A DNA stretch of 64,000 nucleotides. It comes from Sipunculus nudus. Taxonomy: Eukaryota; Annelida; Sipuncula; Golfingiida; Sipunculidae. Made by a program: the position numbers and the translations under genes. The stretch's first letter is position 1. The number at the start of each line of letters is the position of its first letter. Shown in pieces: positions 13,709 to 54,616 of the stretch. The notes below the pieces were generated by a model, which saw nothing but the letters and a program-made list of their open reading frames with translations, was not told where the DNA came from and searched no databases. The stretch covers positions 70,848,926 to 70,912,925 of the forward strand of contig CM049309.1 of the NCBI GenBank assembly GCA_026874595.1, written 5' to 3'.

Positions 13709-13932
13709 TGTTTCAGCCACGACTGTGAAGTTCGACGGACGTCCGACGTCCATTTTTCGTGAAAATGCTCCGTGAATGCCTGCTCTTCCTCCGCTTTTAG
13801 CCGGAAACATATTTCCCTGACCAGCCTTCTGTTCACCGCTTTGCAGTGTCTTTCGCTGATCATCGCTGCCCTCAAGGCTTCGTCAAGATCATGTATATCA
13901 AACGGTGCCAATACACGCTTTCTAATAGACAA
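13624..13932 (-). CDS. Open frame across the left tip, unknown product
   Basis: A frame opening close to the satellite junction runs outward through the tip. It contains VLAPFDIHDLDEALRAAM, CKAVNRRLVREICFRLKAEE and FHEKWTSDVRRTSQS, then leaves the element and stops in flanking DNA. The first in-frame ATG is well inside (…RAAM); the nominal start codon is TTG, so any translation would need an upstream exon or the internal ATG. The predicted peptide is charged and helix-prone and resembles no family I know. The same frame is present at the other tip with one residue changed. The identical DNA alone could explain that, so coding status is open. Confidence 0.2.
   Translation of the reverse strand: MSIRKRVLAPFDIHDLDEALRAAMISERHCKAVNRRLVREICFRLKAEEEQAFTEHFHEKWTSDVRRTSQSWLKHKGLFNDFSGNTWRHSQCTANEQQSRSK
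13711..13717 (+). other. Left target-site duplication of the 40-kb element
   Basis: TTTCAGC lies immediately outside the left terminus and again outside the right terminus (53,779-53,785). Because terminus and duplication share bases, the direct repeat can be read as 7 bp (element CAC...GTG), 9 bp, or 11 bp TGTTTCAGCCA (13,709-13,719 and 53,777-53,787; element CGACTG...CAGTCG). Confidence 0.8.
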
Positions 13933-13958
13933 ATTTCACTATTAATAATACTAATAAT
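13718..13958 (+). repeat. Left unique tip of the inverted repeat
   Basis: 241 bp without satellite homology, matching 53,538-53,778 in reverse complement. Only two substitutions were seen, CCCTGACC/CCCTAACC and GTGTCTTT/GTGTATTT, plus homopolymer length differences just inside. It includes overlapping palindromes around GGACGTCC and passes into the satellite at GCGACTATTATTC, which is homologous to the monomer's TACGACTATTATTC. Confidence 0.92.
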
Positions 13959-14445
13959 GCGACTATTATTCTTTTTTTTTTTTAAATCTGCTTGATATAA
14001 AAAATGTTATAAAATTTTAAATACGCTAAACAACCATCAAGTTTGGTATCAACGGAAAGTACTTTTCACAGGTAGTCGCATGGTATGAATTTTAGAGTGG
14101 CACAAGTGAGCGTTTTAGAGAAGTCAAATACGACTTTTATTCAATTTTATTTTAATTTAGCGTGAATTTTAAAGTGTTATAAAATTTTAATTACGCTAAA
14201 CAACCCATTAAGTATGGTATCAACGGAAAGTACTTTTTACTGGTAGTCATATGGTATGAAATTTAGAGTTGCACAAGTGAGCGTTTTAGAGCAATCAAAT
14301 ACGACTTTTATTTAATTTTATTTTAATTTAGCGTGAATTTTAAAGTATTATACATCTTTAAATACGCTAAACAACCCATCAAGTTTGGTATCAACGGAAA
14401 GGACTTTTTACTGGTATTCACATGGTATGAATTTTAGAGTGGCAC

Positions 14446-17400
14446 AAGTATGCGTTTTAGAGCAGTCAGATACGACTATTATTCATTTTTTTTTAATTTA
14501 GCGTGAATTTAAAAGTGTTATTAATCTTTAAATACGCTTAACAACCCATCACGTTTGGTATAAACGGAAAGGACTTTTTACTGGTATTCACATGGTATGA
14601 ATTTTAGAGTGGCACAAGTGACCGTTTTAGAGCAGTCAAGTACGACTTTTATTCAATTTTTTTAATTTAGCGTGAATTTTAAAGTATTAAACATCTTTAA
14701 ATACGCTAAACAACCCATCAAGTTTGGTATCAACGAAAAGGACTTTTTACTGGTATTCACATGGTATGAATTTTAGAGTGGCACAAGTGTGCGTTTCAGA
14801 GCAGTCAGATACGACTATTATTCATTTTTTTAAAATTTAGCGTGAATTTTAAAGTGTTATTAATCTTTAAATACGCTAAACAACCCATCACGTTTGGTAT
14901 AAACGGAAAGAACTTTTTACTGGTAGTCACATGGTATGAATTTTAGAGTGGCACAAGAGACCGTTTTAGAGCAGTCAGGTACGACTATTATTCAATTTTA
15001 TTTTAATTTAGCGTGAATTTTAAAGTGTTATAAAATTTTAATTACGCTAAACAACCCATCACGTTTGGTATCAACGGAAAGGACTTTTTAGTGGTATTCA
15101 CATGGTTTGAATTTTAGAGTGGCACAAGTGAGCGTTTTAGAGCAGTTAGATACGACTATTATTCATTTTTTTTAATTTAGCGTGAATTTTAAAGTGTTAT
15201 TAATCTTTAAATACGCTAAACAACCCATCACGTTTGGTATAAACGGAAAGAACTTTTTACTGGTAGTCACATGGTATGAATTTTAGAGTGGCACAAGTGA
15301 GCGTTTTAGAGCAGGCGGATACGACATATATTCAATTTTTTTTCAATTTCGCGTTGATTTTAAAGTGTTATATATATTTAAATACGCTTAACAACTCATC
15401 AAGTTTGGTATCAACGGAAAGTACTTTGCACTGGTAGACCCATGGTATATAAATTAGAGTGGCACAAGTGAGCGTTTTAGAGCAGGCGGATACGACTAAT
15501 ATTCAATTTTTTTTCAATTTCGCGTTGATTTTAAAGTGTTATATATATTTAAATACGCTTAACAACCCATCAAGTTTGGTATCAACGGAAAGTACTTTTC
15601 ACTGGTAGTCCCATGGTATAAAAATCAGAGTGGCACAAGTGAGCGTTTTAGAGCAGCCTGATACGACTATTATTCATTTTTTTTTAATTTCCCGTGGATT
15701 TTAAAGTGTTATATATATTTAAAAACGCTTAACAACCCATCAGGTTTGGTATCAACGGAAAGTACTTTGCACTGGTAGTCCCATGGTATATAAATTAGAG
15801 TGGCACAAGTGAGCGTTTTAGAGCAGGCGGATACGACTAATATTCAATTTTTTTTCAATTTCGCGTTTATTTTAAAGTGTTATATATATTTAAATAGGCT
15901 TAAAAACTCATCAAGTTTGGTACCAACGGAAAGTATTTTTTACTGATAGTCACATGGTATAAAAATTAGAGTGGCACAAGTGAGCGTTTTAGAGCAGTAG
16001 GATACGACTATTATTCATTTTTTAAAATTTCTCTTGGATTTAAAAGTGTTATTAATCTTTAAATACGCTAAACAACCCATCACGTTTGGTATAAACTGAA
16101 AGAACTTTTTACTGGTAGTCACATGGTATGAATTTTAGAGTGGCACAAGTGAGCGTTTTAGAGCAGTCAAATACGACTATTATTCAATTTTATTTTAATT
16201 TAGCGTGAATTTTAAAGTGTTATAAAATTTTAATTACGCTAAACAACCCATCAAGTTTGGTATCAACGGAAAGTACTTTTTACTGGTATTCACATGATAT
16301 GAATTTTAGAGTGGCACAAGTGAGCGTTTTAGAGCAGGCGGATACGACTAATATTCAATTTTTTTTCAATTTCGCGTTGATTTTAAAGTGTTATATATAT
16401 TTAAATACGCTTAACAACCCATCAAGTTTGGTATCAACGGAAAGTACTTTTCACTGGTAGTCCCATGGTATAAAAATCAGAGTGGCACAAGTGAGCGTTT
16501 TAGAGCAGCCTGATACGACTATTATTCATTTTTTTTTTAATTTCCCGTGGATTTTAAAGTGTTATATATCTTTAAATACGCTAAACAACCCATCAAGTTT
16601 GGTATCAACGGAAAGTACTTGGCACTGGTAGTCCCATGGTATATAAATTAGAGTGGCACAAGTGAGCGTTTTAGAGCAGTGGGATACGACTATTATTCAT
16701 TTTTTTAAATTTCTCTTGGATTTAAAAGTGTTATATATCTTTAAATACGCTAAACAACCCATCAAGTTTGGTATCAACGGAAAGTACTTGGCACTGGTAG
16801 TCCCATGGTATATAAATTAGAGTGGCACAAGTGAGCGTTTTAGAGCAGGCGGATACGACTAATATTCAATTTTTTTTTCAATTTCGCGTTGATTTTAAAG
16901 TGTTATATATATTTAAATACGCTTAACAACCCATCAAGTTTGGTATCAACGGAAAGTACTTTTCACTGGTAGTGCCATGGTATAAAAATCAGAGTGGCAC
17001 AAGTGAGCGTTTTAGAGCAGTCAGATACGACTATTATTCATTTTTTTAAATTTCCCGTGGATTTTAAAGTGTTATATATATTTAAAAACCCTTAACAACC
17101 CATCAAGTTTGGTATCAACGGAAAGGACTTTTTACTGGTATTCACATGGTATGAATTTTAGAGTGGCACAAGTATGCGTTTTAGAGCAGTCAGATACGAC
17201 TATTATTCATTTTTTTTTAATTTTGCGTGAATTTAAAAGTGTTATTAATCTTTAAATACGCTTAACAACCCATCACGTTTGGTATAAACGGAAAGGACTT
17301 TTTACTGGTATTCACATGGTATGAATTTTAGAGTGGCACAAGTGACCGTTTTAGAGCAGTCAAGTACGACTTTTATTCATTTTTTTTTAATTTAGCGTGA

Positions 17401-20400
17401 ATTTTAAAGTATTAAACATCTTTAAATACGCTAAACAACCCATCAAGTTTGGTATCAACGAAAAGGACTTTTTACTGGTATTCACATGGTATGAATTTTA
17501 GAGTGGCACAAGTGTGCGTTTCAGAGCAGTCAGATACGACTATTATTCATTTTTTTTAAATTTAGCGTGAATTTTAAAGTGTTATTAATCTTTAAATACG
17601 CTAAACAACCCATCACGTTTGGTATAAACGGAAAGAACTTTTTACTGGTAGTCACATGGTATGAATTTTAGAGTGGCACAAGAGACCGTTTTAGAGCAGT
17701 CAGGTACGACTATTATTCAATTTTATTTTAATTTAGCGTGAATTTTAAAGTGTTATAAAATTTTAATTACGCTAAACAACCCATCACGTTTGGTATCAAC
17801 GGAAAGGACTTTTTAGTGGTATTCACATGGTATGAATTTTAGAGTGGCACAAGTGAGCGTTTTAGAGCAGTTAGATACGACTATTATTCATTTTTTTTAA
17901 TTTAGCGTGAATTTTAAAGTGTTATTAATCTTTAAATACGCTAAACAACCCATCACGTTTGGTATAAACGGAAAGAACTTTTTACTGGTAGTCACATGGT
18001 ATGAATTTTAGAGTGGCACAAGTGAGCGTTTTAGAGCAGGCGGATACGACATATATTCAATTTTTTTTCAATTTCGCGTGAATTTTAAAGTGTTATATAT
18101 ATTTAAATACGCTTAACAACTCATCAAGTTTGGTATCAACGGAAAGTACTTTGCACTGGTAGACCCATGGTATATAAATAAGAGTGGCACAAGTGAGCGT
18201 TTTAGAGCAGGCGGATACGACTAATATTCAATTTTTTTTCAATTTCGCGTTGATTTTAAAGTGTTATATATATTTAAATACGCTTAACAACCCATCAAGT
18301 TTGGTATCAACGGAAAGTACTTTTCACTGGTAGTCCCATGGTATAAAAATCAGAGTGGCACAAGTGAGCGTTTTAGAGCAGCCTGATACGACTATTATTC
18401 ATTTTTTTTTTAATTTCCCGTGGATTTTAAAGTGTTATATATATTTAAAAACGCTTAACAAGCCATCAAGTTTGGTATCAACGGAAAGTACTTTGCACTG
18501 GTAGTCCCATGGTATATAAATTAGAGTGGCACAAGTGAGCGTTTTAGAGCAGGCGGATACGACTAATATTCAATTTTTTTTCAATTTCGCGTTTATTTTA
18601 AAGTGTTATATATATTTAAATACGCTTAAAAACTCATCAAGTTTGGTACCAACGGAAAGTATTTTTTACTGATAGTCACATGGTATAAAAATTAGAGTGG
18701 CACAAGTGAGCGTTTTAGAGCAGGCAGATACGTCTATTATTCATTTTTTTAAATTTCGCGTTGATTTTAAAGTGTTATATATATTTAAATACGCTTAACA
18801 ACCCATCAAGTTTAGTATCAACGGAAAGTACTTTTCACTGGTAGTCCCATGGTATAAAAATCAGAGTGGCACAAGTGAGCGTTTTAGAGCAGCCTGATAC
18901 GACTATTATTCATTTTTTTTTAATTTCCCGTGGATTTTAAAGTGTTATATATATTTAAAAACGCTTAACAACCCATTAAGTTTGGTATCAACGTAAAGTA
19001 CTTTGCACTGGTAGTCCCATGGTATATAAATTAGAGTGGCCTAGTGAGCGTTTTAGAGCAGGCGGATACGACTAATATTCAATTTTTTTTTCAATTTCGC
19101 GTTTATTTTAAAGTGTTATATATATTTAAATACGCTTAACAACTCATCAAGTTTGGTATCAACGGAAAGTACTTTTCACTGGTAGTCACATGGTTTAAAA
19201 ATTAGAGTGGCACAAGTGAGCGTTTCAGAGCAGTCAGATACGTCTATTATTCATTTTTTTAAATTTCGCGTTGATTTTAAAGTGTTATATATATTTTAAT
19301 ACGCTAAACAACCCATCAAGTTTGGTATCAACGGAAAGTACTTTTCACTGGTGGTCACATGGTATAAAAATTAGAGTGGCACAAGTGAGCGTTTTAGAGC
19401 AGTCAGATACGACTATTATTCATTTTTTTTAATTTCTCTTGGATTTAAAAGTGTTATATATATTTAAATACGCTTAACAACCCATCAAGTTTGGTATCAA
19501 CGGAAAGTACTTTTCACTGGTAGTCACATGATATAAAAATTAGAGTGGCACAAGTGAGCGTTTTAGAGCAGGAGGATACGACTAATATTCAATTTTTTTT
19601 TCAATTTCGCGTTGATTTTAAAGTGTTATATATATTTAAATACCCTTAAAAACTCATCAAGTTTGGTACCAACGGAAAGTATTTTTTACTGGTAGTCACA
19701 TGGTATAAAAATTAGAGTGGCACAAGTGAGCGTTTTAGAGCAGTGGGATACGACTATTATTCATTTTTTTAAATTTCTCTTGGATTTAAAAGTGTTATAT
19801 ATCTTTAAATACGCTAAACAACCCATCAAGTTTGGTATCAACGGAAAGTACTTGGCACTGGTAGTCCCATGGTATATAAATTAGAGTGGCACAAGTGAGC
19901 GTTTTAGAGCAGGCGGATACGACTAATATTCAATTTTTTTTTTCAATTTCGCGTTGATTTTAAAGTGTTATATATATTTAAATACGCTTAACAACCCATC
20001 AAGTTTGGTATCAACGGAAAGTACTTTTCACTGGTAGTGCCATGGTATAAAAATCAGAGTGGCACAAGTGAGCGTTTTAGAGCAGTCAGATACGACTATT
20101 ATTCATTTTTTTAAATTTCCCGTGGATTTTAAAGTGTTATATATATTTAAAAACCCTTAACAACCCATCAAGTTTGGTATCAACGGAAAGGACTTTTTAC
20201 TGGTATTCACATGGTATGAATTTTAGAGTGGCACAAGTATGCGTTTTAGAGCAGTCAGATACGACTATTATTCATTTTTTTTTAATTTTGCGTGAATTTA
20301 AAAGTGTTATTAATCTTTAAATACGCTTAACAACCCATCACGTTTGGTATAAACGGAAAGGACTTTTTACTGGTATTCACATGGTATGAATTTTAGAGTG

Positions 20401-23400
20401 GCACAAGTGACCGTTTTAGAGCAGTCAAGTACGACTTTTATTCATTTTTTTTTAATTTAGCGTGAATTTTAAAGTATTAAACATCTTTAAATACGCTAAA
20501 CAACCCATCAAGTTTGGTATCAACGAAAAGGACTTTTTACTGGTATTCACATGGTATGAATTTTAGAGTGGCACAAGTGTGCGTTTCAGAGCAGTCAGAT
20601 ACGACTATTATTCATTTTTTTTAAATTTAGCGTGAATTTAAAGTGTTATTAATCTTTAAATACGCTAAACAACCCATCACGTTTGGTATAAACGGAAAGA
20701 ACTTTTTACTGGTAGTCACATGGTATGAATTTTAGAGTGGCACAAGAGACCGTTTTAGAGCAGTCAGGTACGACTATTATTCAATTTTATTTTAATTTAG
20801 CGTGAATTTTAAAGTGTTATAAAATTTTAATTACGCTAAACAACCCATCACGTTTGGTATCAACGGAAAGGACTTTTTAGTGGTATTCACATGGTATGAA
20901 TTTTAGAGTGGCACAAGTGAGCGTTTTAGAGCAGTTAGATACGACTATTATTCATTTTTTTTAATTTAGCGTGAATTTTAAAGTGTTATTAATCTTTAAA
21001 TACGCTAAACAACCCATCACGTTTGGTATAAACGGAAAGAACTTTTTACTGGTAGTCACATGGTATGAATTTTAGAGTGGCACAAGTGAGCGTTTTAGAG
21101 CAGGCGGATACGACATATATTCAATTTTTTTTCAATTTCGCGTGAATTTTAAAGTGTTATATATATTTAAATACGCTTAACAACTCATCAAGTTTGGTAT
21201 CAACGGAAAGTACTTTGCACTGGTAGACCCATGGTATATAAATAAGAGTGGCACAAGTGAGCGTTTTAGAGCAGGCGGATACGACTAATATTCAATTTTT
21301 TTTCAATTTCGCGTTGATTTTAAAGTGTTATATATATTTAAATACGCTTAACAACCCATCAAGTTTGGTATCAACGGAAAGTACTTTTCACTGGTAGTCC
21401 CATGGTATAAAAATCAGAGTGGCACAAGTGAGCGTTTTAGAGCACCCTGATACGACTATTATTCATTTTTTTTTAATTTCCCGTGGATTTTAAAGTGTTA
21501 TATATATTTAAAAACGCTTAACAACCCATCAAGTTTGGTATCAACGGAAAGTACTTTGCACTGGTAGTCCCATGGTATATAAATTAGAGTGGCACAAGTG
21601 AGCGTTTTAGAGCAGGCGGATACGACTAATATTCAATTTTTTTTCAATTTCGCGTTTATTTTAAAGTGTTATATATATTTAAATACGCTTAAAAACTCAT
21701 CAAGTTTGGTACCAACGGAAAGTATTTTTTACTGATAGTCACATGGTATAAAAATTAGAGTGGCACAAGTGAGCGTTTTAGAGCAGTAGGATACGACTAT
21801 TATTCATTTTTTAAAATTTCTCTTGGATTTAAAAGTGTTATTAATCTTTAAATACGCTAAACAACCCATCACGTTTGGTATAAACTGAAAGAACTTTTTA
21901 CTGGTAGTCACATGGTATGAATTTTAGAGTGGCACAAGTGAGCGTTTTAGAGCAGTCAAATACGACTATTATTCAATTTTATTTGAATTTAGCGTGAATT
22001 TTAAAGTGTTATAAAATTTTAATTACGCTAAACAACCCATCAAGTTTGGTATCAACGGAAAGTACTTTTTACTGGTACTCACATGGTATGAATTTTAGAG
22101 TGGCACAAGTGAGCGTTTTAGAGCAGGCGGATACGACATATATTCAATTTTTTTTCAATTTCGCGTTGATTTTAAAGTGTTATATATATTTAAATACGTT
22201 TAACAACTCATCAAGTTTGGTATCAACGGAAAGTACTTTGCACTGGTAGACCCATGGTATATAAATTAGAGTGGCACAAGTGAGCGTTTTAGAGCAGGCG
22301 GATACGACTAATATTCAATTTTTTTTCAATTTCGCGTTGATTTTAAAGTGTTATATATATTTAAATACGCTTAACAACCCATCAAGTTTGGTATCAACGG
22401 AAAGTACTTTTCACTGGTAGTCCCATGGTATAAAAATCAGAGTGGCACAAGTGAGTGTTTTAGAGCAGCCTGATACGACTATTATTCATTTTTTTTTAAT
22501 TTCCCGTGGATTTTAAAGTGTTATATATATTTAAAAACGCTTAACAACCCATCAAGTTTGGTATCAACGGAAAGTACTTTGCACTGGTAGTCCCATGGTA
22601 TATAAATTAGAGTGGCACAAGTGAGCGTTTTAGAGCAGGCGGATACGACTAATATTCAATTTTTTTTCAATTTCGCGTTTATTTTAAAGTGTTATATATA
22701 TTTAAATACGCTTAACAACTCATCAAGTTTGGTATCAACGGAAAGTACTTTTCACTGGTAGTCACATGGTTTAAAAATTAGAGTGGCACAAGTGAGCGTT
22801 TCAGAGCAGTCAGATACGTCTATTATTCAATTTTTTTTAAATTTCGCGTTGATTTTAAAGTGTTATATATATTTAAATACGCTAAACAACCCATCAAGTT
22901 TGGTATCAACGGAAAGTACTTTTCACTGGTGGTCACATGGTATAAAAATTAGAGTGGCACAAGTGAGCGTTTTAGAGCAGTCAGATACGACTATTATTCA
23001 TTTTTTTTAATTTCTCTTGGATTTAAAAGTGTTATATATATTTAAATACGCTTAACAACCCATCAAGTTTGGTATCAACGGAAAGTACTTTTCACTGGTA
23101 GTCACATGATATAAAAATTAGAGTGGCACAAGTGAGCGTTTTAGAGCAGGAGGATACGACTAATATCCAATTTTTTTTTCAATTTCGCGTTGATTTTAAA
23201 GTGTTATATATATTTAAATACGCTTAAAAACTCATCAAGTTTGGTACCAACGGAAAGTATTTTTTACTGGTAGTCACATGGTATAAAAATTAGAGTGGCA
23301 CAAGTGAGCGTTTTAGAGCAGTGGGATACGACTAATATTCATTTTTTTAAATTTCTCTTGGATTTAAAAGTGTTATATATCTTTCAATACGCTAAACAAC

Positions 23401-23450
23401 CCATCAAGTTTGGTATCAACGGAAAGTACTTGGCACTGGTAGTCCCATGG
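14446..23450 (+). repeat. Higher-order repeat, 16-, 18- and 21-monomer versions
   Basis: The rare variant GCACAAGTATGCG occurs at 14,446, 17,170 and 20,235 (spacing 2,724 and 3,065 bp). GCACAAGAGACCG at 14,951, 17,676 and 20,740 gives 2,725 and 3,064. CTTGGCACTGG at about 16,790, 19,853 and 23,429 gives 3,063 and 3,576. These are multi-monomer units of 16, 18 and about 21 monomers, differing by insertion or loss of whole monomers. Within matching blocks copies are nearly identical, whereas neighbouring monomers in one block differ much more, the hallmark of higher-order amplification. Confidence 0.85.
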
Positions 23451-24949
23451 TATATAAATTAGAGTGGAACAAGTGAGCGTTTTAGAGCAGTCAGATACGA
23501 CTATTATTCATTTTTTTTTTTAATTTCTCTTGGATTTAATAGTGTTATATATATTTTAATACGCTAAACAACTCATCAAGTTTGGTACCAACGGAAAGTA
23601 CTTTTCACTGGTAGTCACGTGGTATAAAAATTAGAGTGGCACAAGTGAGCGTTTTAGAGCAGTCAGATACGACTATTATTTCTTTTTTTTTTTAATTTCC
23701 CGTGGATTTTAAAGTGTTATTTATTTTAAAATACGCTAAACAACCCATCAAGTTTGGTATCAACGGAAAGTACTTTTCACTGGTAGTCCCATGGTATATA
23801 AATTAGAGTGGCACAAGTGAGCGTTTTAGAGCAGGCGGGTACGACTAATATTCATTTTTTTTCAATTTCGCGTTGATTTTAAAGTGTTTTAAATATTTAA
23901 ATACGCTTAACAACTCATCAAGTTTGGTACCAACGGAAAGTACTTTTCACTGGTAGTCACATGGTATAAAAATTAGAGTGGCACAAGTGAGCGTTTTAGA
24001 GCAGTCAGATACGACTATTATTCATTTTTTTAAATTTCTCTTGGATTTAAAAGTGTTATATATATTTAAATACGCTTAACAACCCATCAAGTTTGGTATC
24101 AACGGAAAGTACTTTGAACTGGTAGTCCCATGGTATAAAAATTAGAGTGGCACAAGTGAGCGTTTTAGAGCAGCCTGATACGACTATTATTCTTTTTTTT
24201 TCAATTTCGCGTTGATTTTAAAGTGTTATATATATTTAAATACGCTTAACAACTCATCAAGTTTGGTACCAACGGAAAGTACTTTTCACTGGTAGACACA
24301 TGGTATAAAAATTAGAGTGGCACAAGTGAGCGTTTTAGAGCAGTCAGATACGACTATTATTCATTTTTTTTAATTTCCCGTGGATTTAAAAGTGTTATAT
24401 ATATTTAAATACGCTTAACAACCCATCAAGTTTGGTATCAACGGAAAGTACTTTTCACTGGTAGTCCCATTGTATAAAAATTAGAGTGGCACAAGTGAGC
24501 GTTTTAGAGCAGGCGGATACGACTAATATTCAATTTCTTTTCAATTTCGCGTTGATTTTAAAGTGTTATATATATTTAAATACGCTTAACAACTCATCAA
24601 GTTTGGATTAACGGAAAGTACTTTTCACTGGTAGTCACATGGTATAAAAATTAGAGTGGCACAAGTGAGCGTTTTAGAGCAGTCAGATACGACTATTATT
24701 CATTTTTTTAAATTTCTCTTGGATTTAAAAGTGTTATATATATTTAAATACGCTTAACAACCCATCAAGTTTGGTATCCACGGAAAGTACTTTTCACTGG
24801 TAGTCCCATGGTATAAAAATTAGAGTGGCACAAGTGAGCGTTTTAGAGCAGGCGGATACGACTAATATTCAATTTCTTTTCAATTTCGCGTTGATTTTAA
24901 AGTGTTATATATATTTAAATACGCTTAACAACTCATCAAGTTTGGTATC

Positions 24950-38784: not shown

Positions 38785-38800
38785 CGTTGATTTTAAAATC
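38785..38800. other. Inversion junction of the satellite array
   Basis: Plus-strand monomer text CGCGTTGATTTTAAA runs directly into reverse-complement text TTTTAAAATCCAAGAGAAAT. The two orientations share the AT-rich TTTTAAA, and there is no spacer. Left of it the array reads forward for 24.8 kb, right of it reversed for 14.7 kb. The junction falls at the same point of the monomer in both orientations, which fits strand switching at a short palindrome-like sequence. Confidence 0.95.
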
Positions 38801-39129
38801 CAAGAGAAATTTAAAAAAAATGAATAATAGTCGTATCTGACTGCTCTAAAACGCTCACTTGTGCCACTCTAATTTTTATATCATGTGACGACCAGTGAAA
38901 AGCACTTTCCGTCGTTACCAAACTTATTGAGTTGTTTAGCGTATTTAAATATATATAACACTTTAAAATCCACGGGAAATAAAAAAAATGAATAATAGTC
39001 GTATCAGGCTGCTCTAAAACGCTCACTTGTGCCACTCTAATTTTTATACCATGTGACTTCCAGTGAAAAGTACTTTCCGTTGGTACCAAACATGATGAAT
39101 TGTTAAGCGTATTTAAAGATATATAACAC

Positions 39130-42100: not shown

Positions 42101-45100
42101 TTATATACCATGGGACTACCAGTGCAAAGTACTTTCCGTTGATACCAAACTTGATGGGTTGTTTAGCGTATTTAAAGATATATAACACTTTTAAATCCAA
42201 GAGAAATTTAAAAAAAATGAATAATAGTCGTATCCCACTGCTCTAAAACGCTCACTTGTGCCACTCTGATTTTTATACCATGAGACCACCAGTGAAAAGT
42301 ACTTTCCGTTGATACCAAACTTGATGGGTTGTTTAGCGTATTTAAAGATGTATAATACTTTAAAATTCACGCTAAATAAAAAAAAATGAATAATAGTCGT
42401 ACCTGACTGCTCTAAAACGGTCTCTTGTGCCACTCTAAAATTCATACCATGTGACTACCAGTAAAAAGTTCTTTCCGTTTATACCAAACGTGCTGTGTTT
42501 AGCGTATTTAAAGATTAATAACACTTTAAAATTCACGGTAAATTTAAAAAAAAATGAATAATAGTCGTATCTGACTGCTCTAAAACGCACACTTGTGCCA
42601 CTCTAAAATTTATACCATGTGAATACCAGTGAAAAGTCCTTTCCGTTGATACCAAACTTGATGGGTTGTTTAGCGTATTTAAAGATGTATAATACTTTAA
42701 AATTCACGCTAAATAAAAAAATTTGAATAAAAGTCGTACTTGACTGCTCTAAAATGCTCACTTGTGCCACTCTAAAATTCATACCATAAGACTACCAGTG
42801 AAAAGTTCTTTCCGTTGATACCAAACGTGATGGGTTGTTTAGCGTAATTAAAATTTTATATCACTTTAAAATTCACGCTAAATTAAAATAAAAATGAATA
42901 ATAGTCGTATTTGACTGCTCTAAAACACTCACTTGTGCCACTCTAAAATTCATACCATGTGAATACCAGTAAAATGTCCTTTCCGTTGATACCAAACTTG
43001 ATGGGTTGTTTAGCGTATTTAAAGATGTATAATACTTTAAAATTCACGCTAAATTAAAAAAAAAATTAATAACAGTCGTACTTGACTGCTCTAAAACGCT
43101 CACTTGTGCCACTCTAAAATTCATACCATGTGAATACCAGTAAAAAGTTCTTTCCGTTTATACCAAACTTGATGGGTTGTTTAGCGTATTTAAAAATTAA
43201 TAACACTTTAAAATTCACTCTAAATTAAAAAAAAAAATGAATAATAGTCGTATCTGACTGCTCTTAAACGCATACTTGTGCCACTCTAAAATTCATACCT
43301 TGTGAATTCCAGTAAAAAGTCCTTTCCGTTGATACCAAACTTGATGGGTTGTTTAGCGTATTTAAAGATGTATAATACTTTAAAATTCACGCTAAATTAA
43401 AAAATTTGAATAAAGGTCGTACTTGACTGCTCTAAAACGCTCACTTGTACCACTCTAATTTTTATACCATGTGACTACCAGTGAAAAGTACTTTCCGTTG
43501 GTACCAAACTTGATGAGTTGTTAAGCGTATTTAAATATATATAACACTTTAAAATCCACAGGAAATTAAAAAAAAAATGAATAATAGTCGTATCAGGCTG
43601 CTCTAAAACGCTCACTTGTGCCACTCTAATTTATATACCATGGGACTACCAGTGAAAAGTACTTTCCGTTGATACCAAACTTGATGGGTTGTTAAGGGTT
43701 TTTAAATATATATAACACTTTAAAATCAACGCAAAATTTAAAAAAATGAATAATAGTCGTATCTGACTGCTCTAAAACGCTCACTTGTGCCACTCTAATT
43801 TTTATACCATGTGACTACCAGTGAAAAGTACTTTCCGTTGGTACCAAACTTGATGAGTTGTTTAGCGTATTTAAATATATATAACACTTTAAAATCCACA
43901 GGAAATTAAAAAAAAATGAATAATAGTCGTATCAGGCTGCTCTAAAACGCTCACTTGTGCCTCTCTAATTTATATACCATGGGACTACCAGTGAAAAGTA
44001 CTTTCCGTTGGTACCAAACTTGATGAGTTGTTAAGCGTATTTAAATATGTATAACACTTTAAAATCCACAGGAAATTAAAAAAAATGAATAATAGTCGTA
44101 TCAGGCTGCTCTAAAACACTCTCTTGTGCCACTCTATTTTTTATACCATGGGACTACCAGTGAAAAGTACTTTCCGTGGATACCAAACTTGATGGGTTGT
44201 TTAGCGTATTTTAAAATATATAACACTTAAAAATCCAAGAGAAATTAAAAAAATGAATAATAGTCGTATCTGACTGCTCTAAAACGCTCACTTGTGCCAC
44301 TCTAATTTTTATTCCATGTGACTACCAGTGAAAAGTACTTTCCGTTGGTACCAAACTTGATGAGTTGTTAAGCGTATTTAAATATATATAACACTTTAAA
44401 ATCCACAGGAAATTGAAAAAAAATTGAATATTAGTCGTATCCGCCTGCTCTAAAACGCTCACTTGTGCCATTCTAATTTATATACCATGGGACTACCAGT
44501 GAAAAGTACTTTCCGTTGATACCAAACTTGATGGGTTGTTTAGCGTATTTTAAAATATATAACACTTTTAAATCCAAGAGAAATTTAAAAAAAATGAATA
44601 ATAGTCGTATCTGACTGCTCTAAAACGCTCACTTGTGCCACTCTAATTTTTATACCATGTGACTACCAGTGAAAAGTACTTTCCGTTAATACCAAACTTG
44701 ATGAGCTGTTAAGCGCATTTAAATATATATAACACTTTAAAATCAACGCGAAATTGAAAAAAAATTGAATAATTGTCGTATCTTACTGCTCTAAAACGCT
44801 CACTTGTGCCACTCTAATTTTTATACCACGTGACTACCAGTGAAAAGTACTTTCCGTTGGTACCAAACTTGATGAGTTGTTAAGCGTATTTAAATATATA
44901 TAACACTTTAAAATCCACGGGAAATAAAAAAAAATGAATAACAGTCGTATCAGGCTGCTCTAAAACGCTCACTTGTGCCACTCTAATTTATATACCATGG
45001 GACTACCAGTGCAAAGTACTTTCCGTTGATACCAAACTTGATGGGTTGTTTAGCGTATTTAAAGATATATAACACTTTTAAATCCAAGAGAAATTTTAAA

Positions 45101-48100
45101 AAAATGAATAATAGTCGTATCCCACTGCTCTAAAACGCTCACTTGTGCCACTCTGATTTTTATACCATGTGACCACCAGTGAAAAGTACTTTCCGTTGAT
45201 ACCAAACTTGATGGGTTGTTTAGCGTATTTAAAGATGTATAATACTTTAAAATTCACGCTAAATAAAAAAAAATGAATAATAGTCGTACCTGACTGCTCT
45301 AAAACGGTCTCTTGTGCCACTCTAAAATTCATACCATGTGACTACCAGTAAAAAGTTCTTTCCGTTTATACCAAACGTGCTGTGTTTAGCGTATTTAAAG
45401 ATTAATAACACTTTAAAATTCACGGTAAATTTAAAAAAAAATGAATAATAGTCGTATCTGACTGCTCTGAAACGCACACTTGTGCCACTCTAAAATTCAT
45501 ACCATGTGAATACCAGTGAAAAGTCCTTTCCGTTGATACCAAACTTGATGGGTTGTTTAGCGTATTTAAAGATGTATAATACTTTAAAATTCACGCTAAA
45601 TAAAAAAATTTGAATAAAAGTCGTACTTGACTGCTCTAAAACGCTCACTTGTGCCACTCTAAAATTCATACCATAAGACTACCAGTGAAAAGTTCTTTCC
45701 GTTGATACCAAACGTGATGGGTTGTTTAGCGTAATTAAAATTTTATATCACTTTAAAATTCACGCTAAATTAAAATAAAAATGAATAATAGTCGTATTTG
45801 ACTGCTCTAAAACACTCACTTGTGCCACTCTAAAATTCATACCATGTGAATACCAGTAAAATGTCCTTTCCGTTGATACCAAACTTGATGGGTTGTTTAG
45901 CGTATTTAAAGATGTATAATACTTTAAAATTCACGCTAAATTAAAAAAAAAAATTAATAACAGTCGTACTTGACTGCTCTAAAACGCTCACTTGTGCCAC
46001 TCTAAAATTCATACCATGTGAATACCAGTAAAAAGTTCTTTCCGTTTATACCAAACTTGATGGGTTGTTTAGCGTATTTAAAAATTAATAACACTTTAAA
46101 ATTCACGCTAAATTAAAAAAAAATGAATAATAGTCGTATCTGACTGCTCTTAAACGCATACTTGTGCCACTCTAAAATTCATACCTTGTGAATACCAGTA
46201 AAAAGTCCTTTCCGTTGATACCAAACTTGATGGGTTGTTTAGCGTATTTAAAGATGTATAATACTTTAAAATTCACGCTAAATTAAAAAATTTGAATAAA
46301 GGTCGTACTTGACTGCTCTAAAACGCTCACTTGTGCCACTCTAATTTTTATACCATGTGACTACCAGTGAAAAGTACTTTCCGTTGGTACCAAACTTGAT
46401 GAGTTGTTAAGCGTATTTAAATATATATAACACTTTAAAATCCACAGGAAATTAAAAAAAAATGAATAATAGTCGTATCAGGCTGCTCTAAAACGCTCAC
46501 TTGTGCCACTCTAATTTATATACCATGGGACTACCAGTGAAAAGTACTTTCCGTTGATACCAAACTTGATGGGTTGTTAAGGGTTTTTAAATATATATAA
46601 CACTTTAAAATCAACGCAAAATTTTAAAAAATGAATAATAGTCGTATCTGACTGCTCTAAAACGCTCACTTGTGCCACTCTAATTTTTATACCATGTGAC
46701 TACCAGTGAAAAGTACTTTCCGTTGGTACCAAACTTGATGAGTTGTTTAGCGTATTTAAATATATATAACACTTTAAAATCCACAGGAAATTAAAAAAAA
46801 ATGAATAATAGTCGTATCAGGCTGCTCTAAAACGCTTACTTGTGCCACTCTAATTTATATACCATGGGACTACCAGTGAAAAGTACTTTCCGTTGGTACC
46901 AAACTTGATGAGTTGTTAAGCGTATTTAAATATGTATAACACTTTAAAATCCACAGGAAATTAAAAAAAATGAATAATAGTCGTATCAGGCTGCTCTAAA
47001 ACACTCTCTTGTGCCACTCTATTTTTTATACCATGGGACTACCAGTGAAAAGTACTTTCCGTGGATACCAAACTTGATGGGTTGTTTAGCGTATTTTAAA
47101 ATATATAACACTTAAAAATCCAAGAGAAATTAAAAAAATGAATAATAGTCGTATCTGACTGCTCTAAAACGCTCACTTGTGCCACTCTAATTTTTATTCC
47201 ATGTGACTACCAGTGAAAAGTACTTTCCGTTGGTACCAAACTTGATGAGTTGTTAAGCGTATTTAAATATATATAACACTTTAAAATCAACGCGAAATTG
47301 AAAAAAAATTGAATATTAGTCGTATCCGCCTGCTCTAAAACGCTCACTTGTGCCATTCTAATTTATATACCATGGGACTACCAGTGAAAAGTACTTTCCG
47401 TTGATACCAAACTTGATGGGTTGTTTAGCGTATTTTAAAATATATAACACTTTTAAATCCAAGAGAAGTTTAAAAAAAATGAATAATAGTCGTATCTGAC
47501 TGCTCTAAAACGCTCACTTGTGCCACTCTAATTTTTATACCATGTGACTACCAGTGAAAAGTACTTTCCGTTAATACCAAACTTGATGAGCTGTTAAGCG
47601 CATTTAAATATATATAACACTTTAAAATCAACGCGAAATTGAAAAAAAATTGAATAATTGTCGTATCTTACTGCTCTAAAACGCTCACTTGTGCCACTCT
47701 AATTTTTATACCACGTGACTACCAGTGAAAAGTACTTTCCGTTGGTACCAAACTTGATGAGTTGTTAAGCGTATTTAAATATATATAACACTTTAAAATC
47801 CACGGGAAATTAAAAAAAATGAATAACAGTCGTATCAGGCTGCTCTAAAACGCTCACTTGTGCCACTCTAATTTATATACCATGGGACTACCAGTGCAAA
47901 GTACTTTCCGTTGATACCAAACTTGATGGGTTGTTTAGCGTATTTAAAGATATATAACACTTTTAAATCCAAGAGAAATTTTAAAAAAATGAATAATAGT
48001 CGTATCCCACTGCTCTAAAACGCTCACTTGTGCCACTCTGATTTTTATACCATGTGACCACCAGTGAAAAGTACTTTCCGTTGATACCAAACTTGATAGG

Positions 48101-48300
48101 TTGTTTAGCGTATTTAAAGATGTATAATACTTTAAAATTCATGCTAAATAAAAAAAATGAATAATAGTCGTACCTGACTGCTCTAAAACGGTCTCTTGTG
48201 CCACTCTAAAATTCATACCATGTGACTACCAGTAAAAAGTTCTTTCCGTTTATACCAAACGTGCTGGGTTGTTTAGCGTATTTAAAGATTAATAACACTT
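39130..48300 (-). repeat. Higher-order repeat of the right arm, about 2.9-3.06 kb
   Basis: Equivalent positions recur at offsets of 3,059 bp (39,386 to 42,445), 2,888 bp (CGTGCTGTGTTTAGCG at 42,489 and 45,377) and 2,884 bp (to 48,261). These are 18- and 17-monomer units. Two units share a 5-base deletion (GTGCTGTGTTTAG for GTGCTGGGTTGTTTAG), showing that they derive from each other. The block content corresponds in mirror orientation to the 3-kb unit at 14.4-23.4 kb. Confidence 0.85.
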
Positions 48301-49249
48301 TAAAATTCACGGTAAATTTAAAAAAAAATGAATAATAGTCGTATCTGACTGCTCTGAAACGCACACTTGTGCCACTCTAAAATTCATACCATGTGAATAC
48401 CAGTGAAAAGTCCTTTCCGTTGATACCAAACTTGATGGGTTGTTTAGCGTATTTAAAGATGTATAATACTTTAAAATTCACGCTAAATAAAAAAATTTGA
48501 ATAAAAGTCGTACTTGACTGCTCTAAAACGCTCACTTGTGCCACTGAAAAATTCATACCATAAGACTACCAGTGAAAAGTTCTTTCCGTTGATACCAAAC
48601 GTGATGGGTTGTTTAGCGTAATTAAAATTTTATATCACTTTAAAATTCACGCTAAATTAAAATAAAAATGAATAATAGTCGTATTTGACTGCTCTAAAAC
48701 ACTCACTTGTGCCACTCTAAAATTCATACCATGTGAATACCAGTAAAATGTCCTTTCCGTTGATACCAAACTTGATGGGTTGTTTAGCGTATTTAAAGAT
48801 GTATAATACTTTAAAATTCACGCTAAATTAAAAAAAAAATTAATAACAGTCGTACTTGACTGCTCTAAAACGCTAACTTGTGCCACTCTAAAATTCATAC
48901 CATGTGAATACCAGTAAAAAGTTCTTTCCGTTTATACCAAACTTGATGGGTTGTTTAGCGTATTTAAAAATTAATAACACTTTAAAATTCACGCTAAAAA
49001 AAAAAAAATGAATAATAGTCGTATCTGACTGCTCTTAAACGCATACTTGTGTCACTCTAAAATTCATACCTTGTGAATACCAGTGAAAAGTCCTTTCCGT
49101 TGATACCAAACTTGATGGGTTGTTTAGCGTATTTAAAGATGTATAATACTTTAAAATTCACGCTAAATTAAAAAATTTGAATAAAGGTCGTACTTGACTG
49201 CTCTAAAACGCTCACTTGTGCCACTCTAAAATTCATACCATGTGACTAC

Positions 49250-52200
49250 CTGTTAAAAGTACTTTCCGTTGATACCAAATTTGATGGGTTGTTTAGCGTA
49301 ATTAAAATTTTATATCACTTTGAAATTCACGCTAAATTAAAATAAAATTAAATAAAAGTCGTATTTAATTGCTCTAAAACGCTCACTTGTGCCACTCTAA
49401 ATTTCATACCATGTGACTACCAGTAAAAAGTACTTTCCGTTCATACCATACTTAATGGGTTGTTTAGCGTAATTAAAATTTTATAACACTTTAAAATTCA
49501 CGCTAAATTATAATAAAATTGAATAAAAGTCGTATTTGACTTCTCTAAAACGCTCACTTGTGCCACTCTAAAATTCATACCATGCGACTACCTGTGAAAA
49601 GTTCTTTCCGTTGATACCAAACTTGATGGGTTGTTTAGCGTATTTAAAGATGTATAATACTTTAAAATTCACGCTAAATCAAAAAAATTGAATAAAAGTC
49701 GTACTTGACTGCTCTAAAACGGTCACTTGTGCCACTCTAAAATTCATACCATGTGACTACCAGTAAAAAGTTCTTTCCATTTATACCAAACTTGATGGGT
49801 TGTTTAGCGTATTTAAAGATTAATAACACTTTAAAATTCACGCTAAATTAAAAAAAAATGAATAATAGTAGTATCTGACTGCTCTAAAACGCTCACTTGT
49901 GCCACTCTAAAATTCATACCATGTGAATACCACTAAAAAGTCCTTTCCGTTGATACCAAACGTGATGGGTTGTTTAACGTAATTAAAATTTGATAACACT
50001 TTAAAATTCACGCTAAATTAAAAAAAATGAATAATAGTCGTACCTGACTGCTCTAAAACGGTCTCTTGTGCCACTCTAAAATTCATACCATGTGACTACC
50101 AGTAAAAAGTTCTTTCCGTTTATACCAAACGTGATGGGTTGTTTAGCGTATTTAAAGATTAATAACACTTTAAAATTCACGGTAAATTTTAAAAAAAATG
50201 AATAATAGTCGTATCTGACTGCTCTGAAACGCACACTTGTGCCACTCTAAAATTCATACCATGTGAATACCAGTGAAAAGTCCTTTCCGTTGATACCAAA
50301 CTTGATGGGTTGTTTAGCGTATTTAAAGATGTATAATACTTTAAAATTCACGCTAAATAAAAAAATTTGAATAAAAGTCGTACTTGACTGCTCTAAAACG
50401 CTTACTTGTGCAACTCTAAAATTCATACCATAAGACTACCAATGAAAAGTTCTTTCCGTTGATACCAAACTTGATGGGTTTTTTAACGTAATTAAAATTT
50501 TATATCACTTTAAAATTCACGCTAAATTAAAATAAAAATGAATAATAGTCGTATTTGACTGCTCTAAAACACTCACTTGTGCCACTCTAAAATTTATACC
50601 ATGTTAATACCAGTAAAAAGTCCTTTCCGTTGATACCAAACTTGATGGGTTGTTTAGCGTATTTAAAGATGTATAATACTTTAAAATTCACGCTAAATTA
50701 AAAAAAAAATTAATAACAGTCTTACTTGACTGCTCTAAAACGCTCACTTGTGCCACTCTAAAATTCATACCATGTGAATACCACTAAAAAGTCCTTTCCG
50801 TTGATACCAAACGTGATGGGTTGTTTAACGTAATTAAAATTTGATAACACTTTAAAATTCATACCATGTGAATACCAGTGAAAAGTCCTTTCCGTTGATA
50901 CCAAACTTGATGGGTTGTTTAGCGTATTTAAAAATTAATAACACTTTAAAATTCACGCTAAATTAAAATAAAATTGAATAAAAGTCGTATTTGACTTCTC
51001 TTAAACGCATACTTGTGTCACTCTAAAATTCATACCTTGTGAATACCAGTGAAAAGTCCTTTCCGTTGATACCAAACTTGATGGGTTGTTTAGCGTATTT
51101 AAAGATGTATAATACTTTAAAATTCACGCTAAATTAAAAAATTTGAATAAAGGTCGTACTTGACTGCTCTAAAACGCTCACTTGTGCCACTCTAAAATTC
51201 ATACCATGTGACTACCTGTTAAAAGTACTTTCCGTTGATACCAAATTTGATGGGTTGTTTAGCGTAATTAAAATTTTATATCACTTTGAAATTCACGCTA
51301 AATTAAAATAAAATTAAATAAAAGTCGTATTTAATTGCTCTAAAACGCTCACTTGTGCCACTCTAAATTTCATACCATGTGACTACCAGTAAAAAGTACT
51401 TTCCGTTCATACCATACTTAATGGGTTGTTTAGCGTAATTAAAATTTTATAACACTTTAAAATTCACGCTAAATTATAATAAAATTGAATAAAAGTCGTA
51501 TTTGACTTCTCTAAAACGCTCACTTGTGCCACTCTAAAATTCATACCATGCGACTACCTGTGAAAAGTTCTTTCCGTTGATACCAAACTTGATGGGTTGT
51601 TTAGCGTATTTAAAGATGTATAATACTTTAAAATTCACGCTAAATCAAAAAAATTGAATAAAAGTCGTACTTGACTGCTCTAAAACGGTCACTTGTGCCA
51701 CTCTAAAATTCATACCATGTGACTACCAGTAAAAAGTTCTTTCCATTTATACCAAACTTGATGGGTTGTTTAGCGTATTTAAAGATTAATAACACTTTAA
51801 AATTCACGCTAAATTAAAAAAAAATGAATAATAGTAGTATCTGACTGCTCTAAAACGCTCACTTGTGCCACTCTAAAATTCATACCATGTGAATACCACT
51901 AAAAAGTCCTTTCCGTTGATACCAAACGTGATGGGTTGTTTAACGTAATTAAAATTTGATAACACTTTAAAATTCACGCTAAATTAAAAAAAATGAATAA
52001 TAGTCGTACCTGACTGCTCTAAAACGGTCTCTTGTGCCACTCTAAAATTCATACCATGTGACTACCAGTAAAAAGTTCTTTCCGTTTATACCAAACGTGA
52101 TGGGTTGTTTAGCGTATTTAAAGATTAATAACACTTTAAAATTCACGGTAAATTTTAAAAAAAATGAATAATAGTCGTATCTGACTGCTCTGAAACGCAC

Positions 52201-53180
52201 ACTTGTGCCACTCTAAAATTCATACCATGTGAATACCAGTGAAAAGTCCTTTCCGTTGATACCAAACTTGATGGGTTGTTTAGCGTATTTAAAGATGTAT
52301 AATACTTTAAAATTCACGCTAAATAAAAAAATTTGAATAAAAGTCGTACTTGACTGCTCTAAAACGCTTACTTGTGCAACTCTAAAATTCATACCATAAG
52401 ACTACCAATGAAAAGTTCTTTCCGTTGATACCAAACTTGATGGGTTTTTTAACGTAATTAAAATTTTATATCACTTTAAAATTCACGCTAAATTAAAATA
52501 AAAATGAATAATAGTCGTATTTGACTGCTCTAAAACACTCACTTGTGCCACTCTAAAATTTATACCATGTTAATACCAGTAAAAAGTCCTTTCCGTTGAT
52601 ACCAAACTTGATGGGTTGTTTAGCGTATTTAAAGATGTATAATACTTTAAAATTCACGCTAAATTAAAAAAAAAATTAATAACAGTCTTACTTGACTGCT
52701 CTAAAACGCTCACTTGTGCCACTCTAAAATTCATACCATGTGAATACCACTAAAAAGTCCTTTCCGTTGAAACCAAACGTGATGGGTTGTTTAACGTAAT
52801 TAAAATTTGATAACACTTTAAAATTCACGCTAAATTAAAAAAAAATGAATAATAGTCGTACCTGACTGCTCTAAAACGGTCTCTTGTGCCACTCTAAAAT
52901 TCATACCATGTGACTACCAGTAAAAAGTTCTTTCCGTTTATACCAAACGTGATGGGTTGTTTAGCGTATTTAAAGATTAATAACACTTTAAAATTCACGG
53001 TAAATTTAAAAAAAAATGAATAATAGTCGTATCTGACTGCTCTGAAACGCACACTTGTGCCACTCTAAAATTCATACCATGTGAATACCAGTGAAAAGTC
53101 CTTTCCGTTGATACCAAACTTGATGGGTTGTTTAGCGTATTTAAAAATTAATAACACTTTAAAATTCACGCTAAATTAAA
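49250..53180 (-). repeat. 1,966-bp duplication near the right tip
   Basis: CCTGTTAAAAGTACTTTCC occurs at 49,250 and 51,216, and ATAGTAGTATCTGACTG at about 49,866 and 51,832, both 1,966 bp apart. The offset is not a whole number of monomers (11.6) because the first unit contains the truncated monomer near 50,855. Confidence 0.82.
50820..50900 (-). repeat. Chimeric truncated monomer
   Basis: At about 50,855 TTTAAAATTCA, normally followed by CGCTAAATT, is followed directly by TACCATGTGAATACC, which normally belongs after CTCTAAAATTCA. About 85 bp of a monomer is lost. The join lies in the TAAAATTCA text that occurs twice per monomer, so it looks like deletion between internal short repeats. Confidence 0.8.
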
Positions 53181-53537
53181 ATAAAATTGAATAAAAGTCG
53201 TATTTGACTTCTCTAAAACGCTCACTTGTGCCACTCTAAAATTCATACCATGTGAATACCAGTAAAAAGTCCTTTCCGTTGATACCAAACTTGATGGGTT
53301 GTTTAGCGTAATTAAAATTTTATAGCACTTTAAAATTCACGCTAAATTAAAATAAAATTGAATAAAAGTCGTATTTGACTTCTCTAAAACGCTCACTTGT
53401 GCCACTCTAAAATTCATATCATACCACCTGTGAAAAGTACTTTCCGTTGATACCAAACTTGATGGGTTGTTTAGCGTATTTAAAATTTTATAACATTTTT
53501 ATATCAAGCAGATTTTAAAAAAAAGAATAATAGTCGC

Positions 53538-53778
53538 ATTATTAGTATTATTAATAGTGAAATTTGTCTATTAGAAAGCGTGTATTGGCACCGTTTGATA
53601 TACATGATCTTGACGAAGCCTTGAGGGCAGCGATGATCAGCGAAATACACTGCAAAGCGGTGAACAGAAGGCTGGTTAGGGAAATATGTTTCCGGCTAAA
53701 AGCGGAGGAAGAGCAGGCATTCACGGAGCATTTTCACGAAAAATGGACGTCGGACGTCCGTCGAACTTCACAGTCGTG
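53538..53778 (-). repeat. Right unique tip of the inverted repeat
   Basis: Reverse complement of 13,718-13,958, ending CTTCACAGTCGTG. The satellite-like GAATAATAGTCGC at its inner side matches the left tip's inner border at the same base. The near-identity of two tips 40 kb apart implies recent formation or ongoing conversion. Confidence 0.92.
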
Positions 53779-53818
53779 TTTCAGCCAGGCAGAAGTTTCC
53801 CGAATACCAGAAAAGTGA
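53564..53818 (+). CDS. Open frame across the right tip, unknown product
   Basis: This is the counterpart of the frame at the left tip, running outward from the satellite side. It has the same residues to the element end (one Arg-to-Ile change in ISERHC/ISEIHC) and then a different tail, CFSQAEVSRIPEK, read from flanking DNA. There is no ATG at its opening (TTG); the first ATG is internal. A possible acceptor (TTATTAATAG) precedes the opening. Since the stop codon lies in host DNA at both tips, it is not a self-contained gene of the element. Confidence 0.2.
   Translation: MSIRKRVLAPFDIHDLDEALRAAMISEIHCKAVNRRLVREICFRLKAEEEQAFTEHFHEKWTSDVRRTSQSCFSQAEVSRIPEK
53779..53785 (+). other. Right target-site duplication of the 40-kb element
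   Basis: TTTCAGC directly after the terminal CAGTCGTG, matching 13,711-13,717 in direct orientation. See the left copy for the 7/9/11-bp ambiguity. Confidence 0.8.
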
Positions 53819-54081: not shown

Positions 54082-54088
54082 CTATATG
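54082..54088 (+). other. Left target-site duplication of the 4.5-kb element
   Basis: CTATATG directly before CACAGGCG and again directly after CGCCTGTG at 58,622-58,628. Shifting the right boundary by one base would give the 8-bp GCTATATG. Confidence 0.85.
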
Positions 54089-54565: not shown

Positions 54566-54616
54566 GTAAGTTTTATGAAACTTTATTTTTCATAACACCA
54601 TGTGTTGTGATGCAAG

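What the first reader, a model, noticed from the sequence alone, without database searches (positions are those of the whole stretch)
13709..53787. A 40-kb satellite array packaged as a single Foldback-like transposon
Seen: a 39.6-kb array of a 170-bp satellite is bounded by the same 241-bp unique sequence in inverted orientation, and just outside both ends is a direct repeat of 7-11 bp (TTTCAGC within TGTTTCAGCCA). Known: Foldback elements (FB, Galileo, Tetris) have inverted repeats made of tandem subrepeats and duplicate 7-9 bp of target. Inference: this is one inserted unit of 40,061 bp, far larger than the known cases, and may show how a mobile element seeds a satellite family, or how a satellite moves as cargo.
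Basis: partly seen in the sequence, partly recalled or inferred. Interest (0 to 1): 0.9.

Follow-up and report, generated by a model that had tools for sequence, protein, structure and literature searches.

The report
Giant satellite-filled foldback transposon family
A 40-kb block of a repeated 170-base sequence is the body of a mobile element, one of at least 28 related inserts spanning 4.6 to 42 kb in this unnamed animal-like genome, and almost all copies of the repeat in the assembly appear to sit inside such inserts.

Summary
Observation confirmed and sharpened. The unit is 13719-53777 (40,059 bp): a 240-bp tip, 25 kb of ~170-bp monomers, a head-to-head turn near 38800, 15 kb of the same monomers inverted, and the inverted tip. 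It is flanked by a 9-bp target duplication, GTTTCAGCC. The host genome (1.43 Gb, unnamed) holds at least 28 convergent tip pairs spanning 4.6-42.4 kb; 21 of 28 have perfect 9-bp duplications, all different. One sits in a histone H1 gene; three uninterrupted neighbouring H1 copies show the empty site with one copy of the duplication. Nine of the 11 interiors read in full are satellite only; two also hold other transposon-like sequence; 17 interiors were not read through. By extrapolation the 28 pairs hold 94-98% of 2,482 genome-wide satellite marker hits. Every centre junction compared (8 of 8) is different, while the tip/array junction is fixed. Three of 15 short terminus sites tested are remnants (17, 17 and 28 bp) between target duplications, like excision footprints. 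No transposase was found: 9-bp duplications fit Mutator-like elements, 17-bp remnants hint at P-type cleavage. The transposon reading is strongly supported; seeding of an independent satellite family is not.

The parts
13710..13718 (.). left target-site duplication GTTTCAGCC
13719..13956 (+). left terminal tip (about 240 bp, non-satellite), begins ACGACTGTGAAG
13957..38797 (+). forward arm: tandem ~170-bp monomers, two main subfamilies, one dominating near the tip and the other towards the centre
38792..38815 (.). head-to-head turn of the array (centre junction, differs from the other 7 elements compared)
38798..53539 (-). reverse arm: the same satellite inverted, with a ~17-monomer higher-order period
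53540..53777 (-). right terminal tip, inverted copy of the left tip (2 differences)
53778..53786 (.). right target-site duplication GTTTCAGCC

Best explanation
The 40-kb block is one non-autonomous, cut-and-paste DNA transposon of foldback architecture, belonging to a recently amplified family. A transposase supplied in trans presumably recognises the ~240-bp tips (terminus ACGACTGTGAAGTTCGACGG), inserts the unit with a 9-bp staggered target cut, and can excise it again. The body is two inverted arrays of one ~170-bp satellite joined head to head. After or during transposition the arms change length by unequal exchange or slippage, and the palindrome centre is repeatedly remade, probably by deletion and short-homology joining; the tips stay nearly constant. 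Shown: tips, target duplications, an empty site, copy number, variable centres. Estimated: near-confinement of the satellite to elements. Inferred: trans mobilisation, the excision step, how arms and centre change. The transposase is most likely Mutator-like (about 0.6) on duplication length alone.
For: A 24-base terminus pattern with up to 3 mismatches found 74 matches, control 0. 55 of the 74 belong to 28 convergent pairs spanning 4.6-42.4 kb. Duplications are 9/9 in 21 of 28 pairs, all different. The H1 empty site shows one copy of the duplication in three H1 copies in L043 (96.8-97.2% over 504-505 bp, no gap at the site), and a fourth copy beside the other histone-cluster element is also uninterrupted there. 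Nine elements read in full (window, L032, L037, L040, L041, L050, L073, L074, and L042 with L023) are only tip, array, inverted array, tip. Of these, 8 were compared for junctions: tip/array phase is constant within 3 bases at both ends; centre phases differ in 8 of 8. The satellite marker occurs 2,482 times genome-wide (control 0); density in 8 elements predicts 2,341-2,434 in the 28 pairs. Remnants between target duplications: 17 bp (L088, 9/9), 17 bp (L092, 8/9), 28 bp (L057, 9/9), 3 of 15 sites tested.
Against: No transposase was found in any element read; the PF10551 protein at C6:58346255 belongs to a nested guest element. Of 131 MULE matches (150 of 252 candidates scored) only that one lies inside a pair. 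Three pairs (C1_59.86, C2_41.75, C11_51.34) have no matching duplication, two have 7/9 or 8/9, one has an 8-bp match offset by one base, and one has a 19-bp duplication. Left and right tips of one element are no more alike than random pairing (p 0.29): this fits star-like growth but gives no support for arm homogenisation. 17 of 28 interiors were not read through. The remnants come from a 16-base search with 84 hits whose reversed control gave 46, so some stubs are chance; 12 of 15 tested sites lack a convincing duplication.
Confidence: 0.9

Rival explanations
1. The elements are mobilised by a P-superfamily transposase (as for Galileo), not a Mutator-like one: strands are cut about 17 nt apart, leaving 17-bp stubs at empty donor sites.
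For: Two of three remnants bounded by recognisable target duplications are 17 bp, and P transposase cuts 17 nt inside its repeats (PMC7776569 passages). The MULE Muta1 in yeast excised precisely in about 90% of cases when duplications flanked the donor, and only occasionally left up to 13 bp of terminal repeat, in the construct without duplications (PMC5225508 passages).
Against: Target duplications are 9 bp (21 of 28), against 8 bp for P and zebrafish P-like elements. The search needed 16 bases with at most 1 mismatch, so shorter stubs could not be seen and 17 lies near the detection limit. One of the two 17-bp remnants (L092) matches the tip over only its first 15 bases. The P-family search (PF21787, number recalled) did not complete.
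Confidence: 0.2
2. An ordinary satellite array that spread by recombination or extrachromosomal circles, with the tips as mere flanking unique sequence.
For: The arrays are internally rearranged, as in satellites: higher-order repeats and a ~17-monomer period.
Against: Perfect 9-bp duplications in 21 of 28 pairs, the empty site in H1, a fixed tip/array junction in 8 of 8, and estimated near-absence of the satellite outside elements.
Confidence: 0.03
3. The palindrome is an assembly artefact (hairpin read or haplotype joined head to head).
For: Large head-to-head arrays are a known assembly hazard (general knowledge). One case elsewhere (C1, inverted copies 855 kb apart, 99.9% identical over 999 bp) might be an artefact.
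Against: The arms differ in length (25 v 15 kb), monomer order and sequence; the tips differ at 2 sites; the same anatomy recurs with different flanks and matched duplications.
Confidence: 0.02
4. New copies arise by self-templated fold-back synthesis, one arm being copied to make the other at each event, which would explain the private centre junctions.
For: Centre junction differs in 8 of 8 elements compared.
Against: Left and right tips of one element are no more alike than random pairs (18 elements), and the window arms are not collinear.
Confidence: 0.05

Closest known systems
Tetris (Drosophila virilis foldback; PMC4079207, abstract and passages seen)
   Same: Terminal repeats with a flanking domain followed by ~220-bp tandem repeats; 8-10-bp target duplications; the transposase-bearing element was not found; tandem repeats form kb-size satellite-like arrays. 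Fibre-FISH showed long arrays flanked by two flanking domains and no array of the repeat alone, so this is a close precedent.
   Different: Terminal repeats up to 1,735 bp in complete copies, with a middle domain; arrays of up to 66 copies in contigs; 39 contigs held the repeat without the flanking domain. Here whole units are sequence-resolved to 40 kb (233 monomer anchors), with no middle domain, in a family of 28 pairs.
Tm1 Mutator/Foldback family (Meloidogyne; PMC3169594, abstract and passages seen)
   Same: Composite terminal repeats with tandem motifs, 9-bp duplications, non-autonomous copies, empty site shown at a paralogous locus.
   Different: ~14-bp motif; an element with a Phantom-type MULE transposase is known. 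None was found here.
Galileo (Drosophila, P superfamily; listings and abstract starts, passages about it)
   Same: Long terminal repeats with internal tandem repeats.
   Different: Its P-type transposase and, by recall, its 7-bp duplications; here 9 bp and transposase unknown.
Helentron elements carrying satellite-like arrays (oyster; PMC7492417, passages seen)
   Same: Satellite-like tandem repeats dispersed as part of a mobile element.
   Different: Helitrons make no target duplication, and the arrays are not in long inverted arms.
Mutator-like elements in general (PMC6446971, PMC13359780, passages seen)
   Same: 8-11-bp duplications and long terminal repeats.
   Different: Arthropod full-length MULEs are 1.4-10.0 kb with terminal repeats of 13-1193 bp; here units reach 40-42 kb and one arm 25 kb.

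Membership tests
Foldback-type transposon (structural group) | long inverted repeats made largely of tandem subrepeats | tested here: met
Foldback-type transposon (structural group) | flanking target-site duplication at insertions | tested here: met
   9/9 in 21 of 28 pairs:
Foldback-type transposon (structural group) | interspersed multicopy family with empty sites | tested here: met
   28 pairs; one empty site, at paralogous H1 copies
Mutator/MULE superfamily | 8-11-bp target-site duplication | tested here: met
   9 bp; range from PMC6446971
Mutator/MULE superfamily | MULE transposase encoded by an element with the same termini | tested here: not met
   131 PF10551 matches (150 of 252 candidates scored); the only one inside a pair belongs to a nested element with other termini. 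Divergent, unscored or unassembled copies are not excluded.
P superfamily (Galileo, P) | 7-8-bp target-site duplication | tested here: not met
   9 bp in 21 of 28; one pair (C11_41.05) has 8 bp. 8 bp from PMC7776569; 7 bp is recalled.
P superfamily (Galileo, P) | 17-nt staggered donor cleavage | tested here: inconclusive
   two 17-bp remnants and one 28-bp remnant with duplications among 15 sites tested; detection limit near 16 bp
P superfamily (Galileo, P) | P-type transposase | not tested
   PF21787 search did not complete
Helitron/Helentron | no target-site duplication | tested here: not met
   duplications present; feature from PMC7492417
Free-standing satellite DNA | arrays exist independently of a mobile element | tested here: not met
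   estimated 94-98% of 2,482 marker hits in 28 pairs; the 100 places that the call listed all lie in known pairs or beside single tips. The other 2,382 places were not listed; unassembled heterochromatin not testable.

The most novel reading that the evidence does not exclude
A whole satellite family whose only habitat is a transposon: the repeat is amplified inside, and dispersed only by, giant foldback units up to 42 kb, moved by a transposase that makes 9-bp duplications but cuts donor DNA with a ~17-nt stagger, a combination I do not know for Mutator-like or P-type enzymes.
Probability: 0.15. Interest if true: 0.85.

Novelty: new variant of a known kind. Interest (0 to 1): 0.68.

Why it matters
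Whether satellites spread as transposon bodies or escape from transposons is an open question. Here the repeat family, its vehicle, insertion sites, an empty site and probable excision remnants can be seen in one assembly, with units several times larger than the sequence-resolved foldback and MULE elements in the passages I read. It offers a direct test of how a ~170-bp repeat is amplified inside a palindrome and whether units of tens of kilobases move by cut and paste.

Tried and rejected
Tip as coding gene fragment: a 67-aa frame runs through the tip, but no homologue was found and Pfam gave nothing for the left-tip frame; by rough estimate such a frame is not unlikely by chance.

Tip/satellite homology: only 5-7-base matches, dozens of them, so the shared ACGACT hexamer is not evidence of a transposase site in each monomer.

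Autonomous copy candidates rejected: the C11:51.34 interior holds reading frames that look like BEL/Pao retrotransposons (label from recall, no family scan); C6:58.33 holds a nested 9,446-bp MULE with its own termini and 9-bp duplication GTCGAACTT (transposase domain 27.2 bits, just under Pfam's 27.6, 29.9 bits). About 6 kb read at each of two truncated single tips and two stubs showed no frame of 95 aa or more that I took, by eye, for a DNA-transposon transposase. One of these, C7:49.85, proved to be another element: a tip split by a 1.4-kb insert, then array and inverted array, partner end not found. The variant-terminus class (7 of the 74 hits, 3 read) is a ~770-bp dispersed repeat that carries the first ~125-140 bp of the tip at 87-90%.

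Within-element tip homogenisation: no signal, p 0.29. Target motif: none evident in 21 duplications. IMG/VR scans for satellite and tip: 0 hits. Of 11 one-mismatch hits, 7 were read; one (L092) shows a convincing duplication. L064, L065, L089 and L090 are short stubs and L054 and L058 truncated tips without a convincing duplication.

One search timed out; one search gave an evidently incomplete self-comparison and is not used.

Changes after checking: interest lowered from 0.72 to 0.68 because the Tetris paper's fibre-FISH passage is a closer precedent than I first allowed; unread interiors corrected to 17.
Full report
WHAT IS THERE. The block is a single unit from 13719 to 53777. It has a ~240-bp tip, 146 forward monomer anchors at ~170-bp spacing, a head-to-head turn near 38800, 87 inverted anchors and the inverted tip. 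No anchor pointing the wrong way was found in either arm. It is flanked by GTTTCAGCC on both sides. The arms are unequal (25 and 15 kb) and built from shared monomer subfamilies in different orders, with a ~17-monomer period in the right arm, so this is not a simple mirrored artefact.

THE FAMILY. The window lies in an unnamed 1.43-Gb, 153-contig assembly. A 24-base terminus pattern with up to 3 mismatches hits 74 times, against 0 for the reversed control. Of these, 55 belong to 28 convergent pairs spanning 4.6 to 42.4 kb, median 13.9 kb. The other 19 are 10 single tips, 7 of a variant class and 2 short stubs. Of the 10 single tips, 7 run into satellite within 1 kb; one (C7:49.85) does so after a 1.4-kb insert, one is cut after 63 bp with no satellite in 6 kb, and one is the 28-bp remnant. 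Pairs were defined by position before their flanks were compared. Target duplications are 9/9 in 21 of 28. The rest: C2_27.15 8/9, C2_34.51 7/9, C11_41.05 an 8-bp match offset by one base, C11_77.38 a 19-bp duplication, and no match in C1_59.86, C2_41.75 (the 42.4-kb one) and C11_51.34. C6:58.33 at first looked broken. Its right tip is split by a 9,446-bp MULE element, which itself made a 9-bp duplication, and the true right end restores a 9/9 duplication; with this guest the unit is 21.6 kb, not the 12.1 kb of the size table.

EMPTY SITE. The C2:27.128 element lies inside a frame that reads as histone H1 (named from recall of the sequence) in a tandem cluster. Its two flanks joined with one duplication match three uninterrupted copies in the next stretch at 96.8-97.2% over 504-505 bp, with no gap at the site; a fourth copy, beside the second element C2:27.15 in the same cluster, is also uninterrupted there. 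No empty allele of the window's own site could be looked for.

BODY AND CENTRE. Eleven interiors were read in full. Nine are tip, array, inverted array, tip and nothing else. C11_50.59 has a 2.6-kb insert in its array and C11_51.34 holds about 15 kb of retrotransposon-like frames. In the eight compared, the array starts at the same monomer phase (within 3 bases) at both tips, but the centre joins a different pair of phases in each of the eight. Six elements were compared for monomer subfamilies: most arms start with one subfamily near the tip and pass to another towards the centre, but the window arms intermix blocks of both and L050 and the right arm of L037 carry further classes. First monomers (38) differ by 4% on average, other monomers by 13%. 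The 43 tips read are star-like: left/right similarity within 18 elements is not above random pairing (p 0.29). Inference: one recent expansion with fixed tips, while arms and centres turn over quickly.

THE SATELLITE LIVES IN THE TRANSPOSON. A 29-base marker with up to 2 mismatches occurs 2,482 times genome-wide and the control 0. Marker density in eight fully read elements (5.2 per kb) predicts 2,341-2,434 in the 28 pairs, i.e. 94-98%. The call listed only its first 100 places; by my count all 100 lie in two paired elements and two single-tip loci on C1 and in one paired element on C2. This is an extrapolation from density, and unassembled heterochromatin is not covered.

REMNANTS. A 16-base terminus search with up to 1 mismatch gave 84 hits, 73 exact, against 46 for the reversed control. 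Of 15 short or unpaired sites tested for duplications, three show a short piece of one tip between two copies of a 9-base target: L088 17 bp (9/9), L092 17 bp (8/9; its first 15 bases match the tip), L057 28 bp made of the left end plus the last bases of the right end (9/9). The other 12 do not convince. These three look like excision footprints; deletion of a whole palindrome would look similar. Because the search needed about 16 matching bases, shorter footprints are invisible.

TRANSPOSASE. None found. The genome search reported 131 MULE-domain matches (150 of 252 candidates scored), one lineage with dozens of copies in a 607-aa frame, but only the nested guest lies inside a pair. The P-type search did not complete. 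The superfamily is therefore open: 9-bp duplications fit MULEs (8-11 bp, PMC6446971), 17-bp remnants resemble P-type cleavage (PMC7776569).

LITERATURE. Tetris, Tm1 and Galileo establish foldback elements with tandem repeats and, for Tetris, a link to satellites and long element-bound arrays seen by fibre-FISH (passages; Galileo also in the listing). Nine searches, several with listings shorter than their hit counts, showed me no sequence-resolved foldback element of tens of kilobases made only of satellite. The library lacks most subscription papers, and the giant FB-flanked segments of Drosophila are known to me by recall.

HOST. Not named. Histone genes, retrotransposon frames and repeat style suggest an animal, perhaps a mollusc; that is recall and inference only.

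Noticed in passing
54084-58627: A second element starts about 300 bp from the satellite unit: ~171-bp inverted ends 98% alike, CTATATG at both outer edges, and a short helicase-like frame (AAA_30, E 8e-4, below Pfam's cut-off).
   Followed up: partly
1-867: A 337-bp tandem repeat, 2.5 copies, cut by the window start; a related piece lies at 3514-3593.
   Followed up: no
1006-2268: A ~580-bp sequence present twice in direct orientation at 75% identity.
   Followed up: no
56782-57353: A 199-bp tandem repeat, 2.9 copies, inside the neighbouring inverted-end element.
   Followed up: no
12485-12585 and 62534-62589: A tRNA-Leu-like sequence, part of which recurs inverted at 62534: probably a tRNA-derived SINE (the label is inference).
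   Followed up: no
L032, L043, L044 (C2:27.13-27.17 Mb): Two elements of the family sit in a tandem cluster of histone H1-like genes, at least one inside the coding frame.
   Followed up: partly
L062, L063 (C1:65946778 and C1:66801721): The same flank, tip and array start occur twice in inverted orientation 855 kb apart at 99.9% identity over 999 bp: recent inverted duplication or assembly duplication.
   Followed up: partly
C10:17575435, C11:585521 and others: A MULE lineage with dozens of copies sharing a 607-aa open frame, apparently recently amplified; two copies are 98% and 96% alike over the two flanks read.
   Followed up: partly
L051-L053: A ~770-bp dispersed repeat contains an older copy of the first ~125-140 bp of the tip, at the same junction in the 3 copies read.
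   Followed up: partly
C11:77377293-77396550: This element is flanked by a 19-bp duplication, TACAAGTACCTGCTCGCCT, instead of 9 bp.
   Followed up: no
C1:59879005-59882563: No exact satellite hit is listed in the middle 3.6 kb of the C1:59.86 element: possibly other content, perhaps a gene; not read.
   Followed up: no
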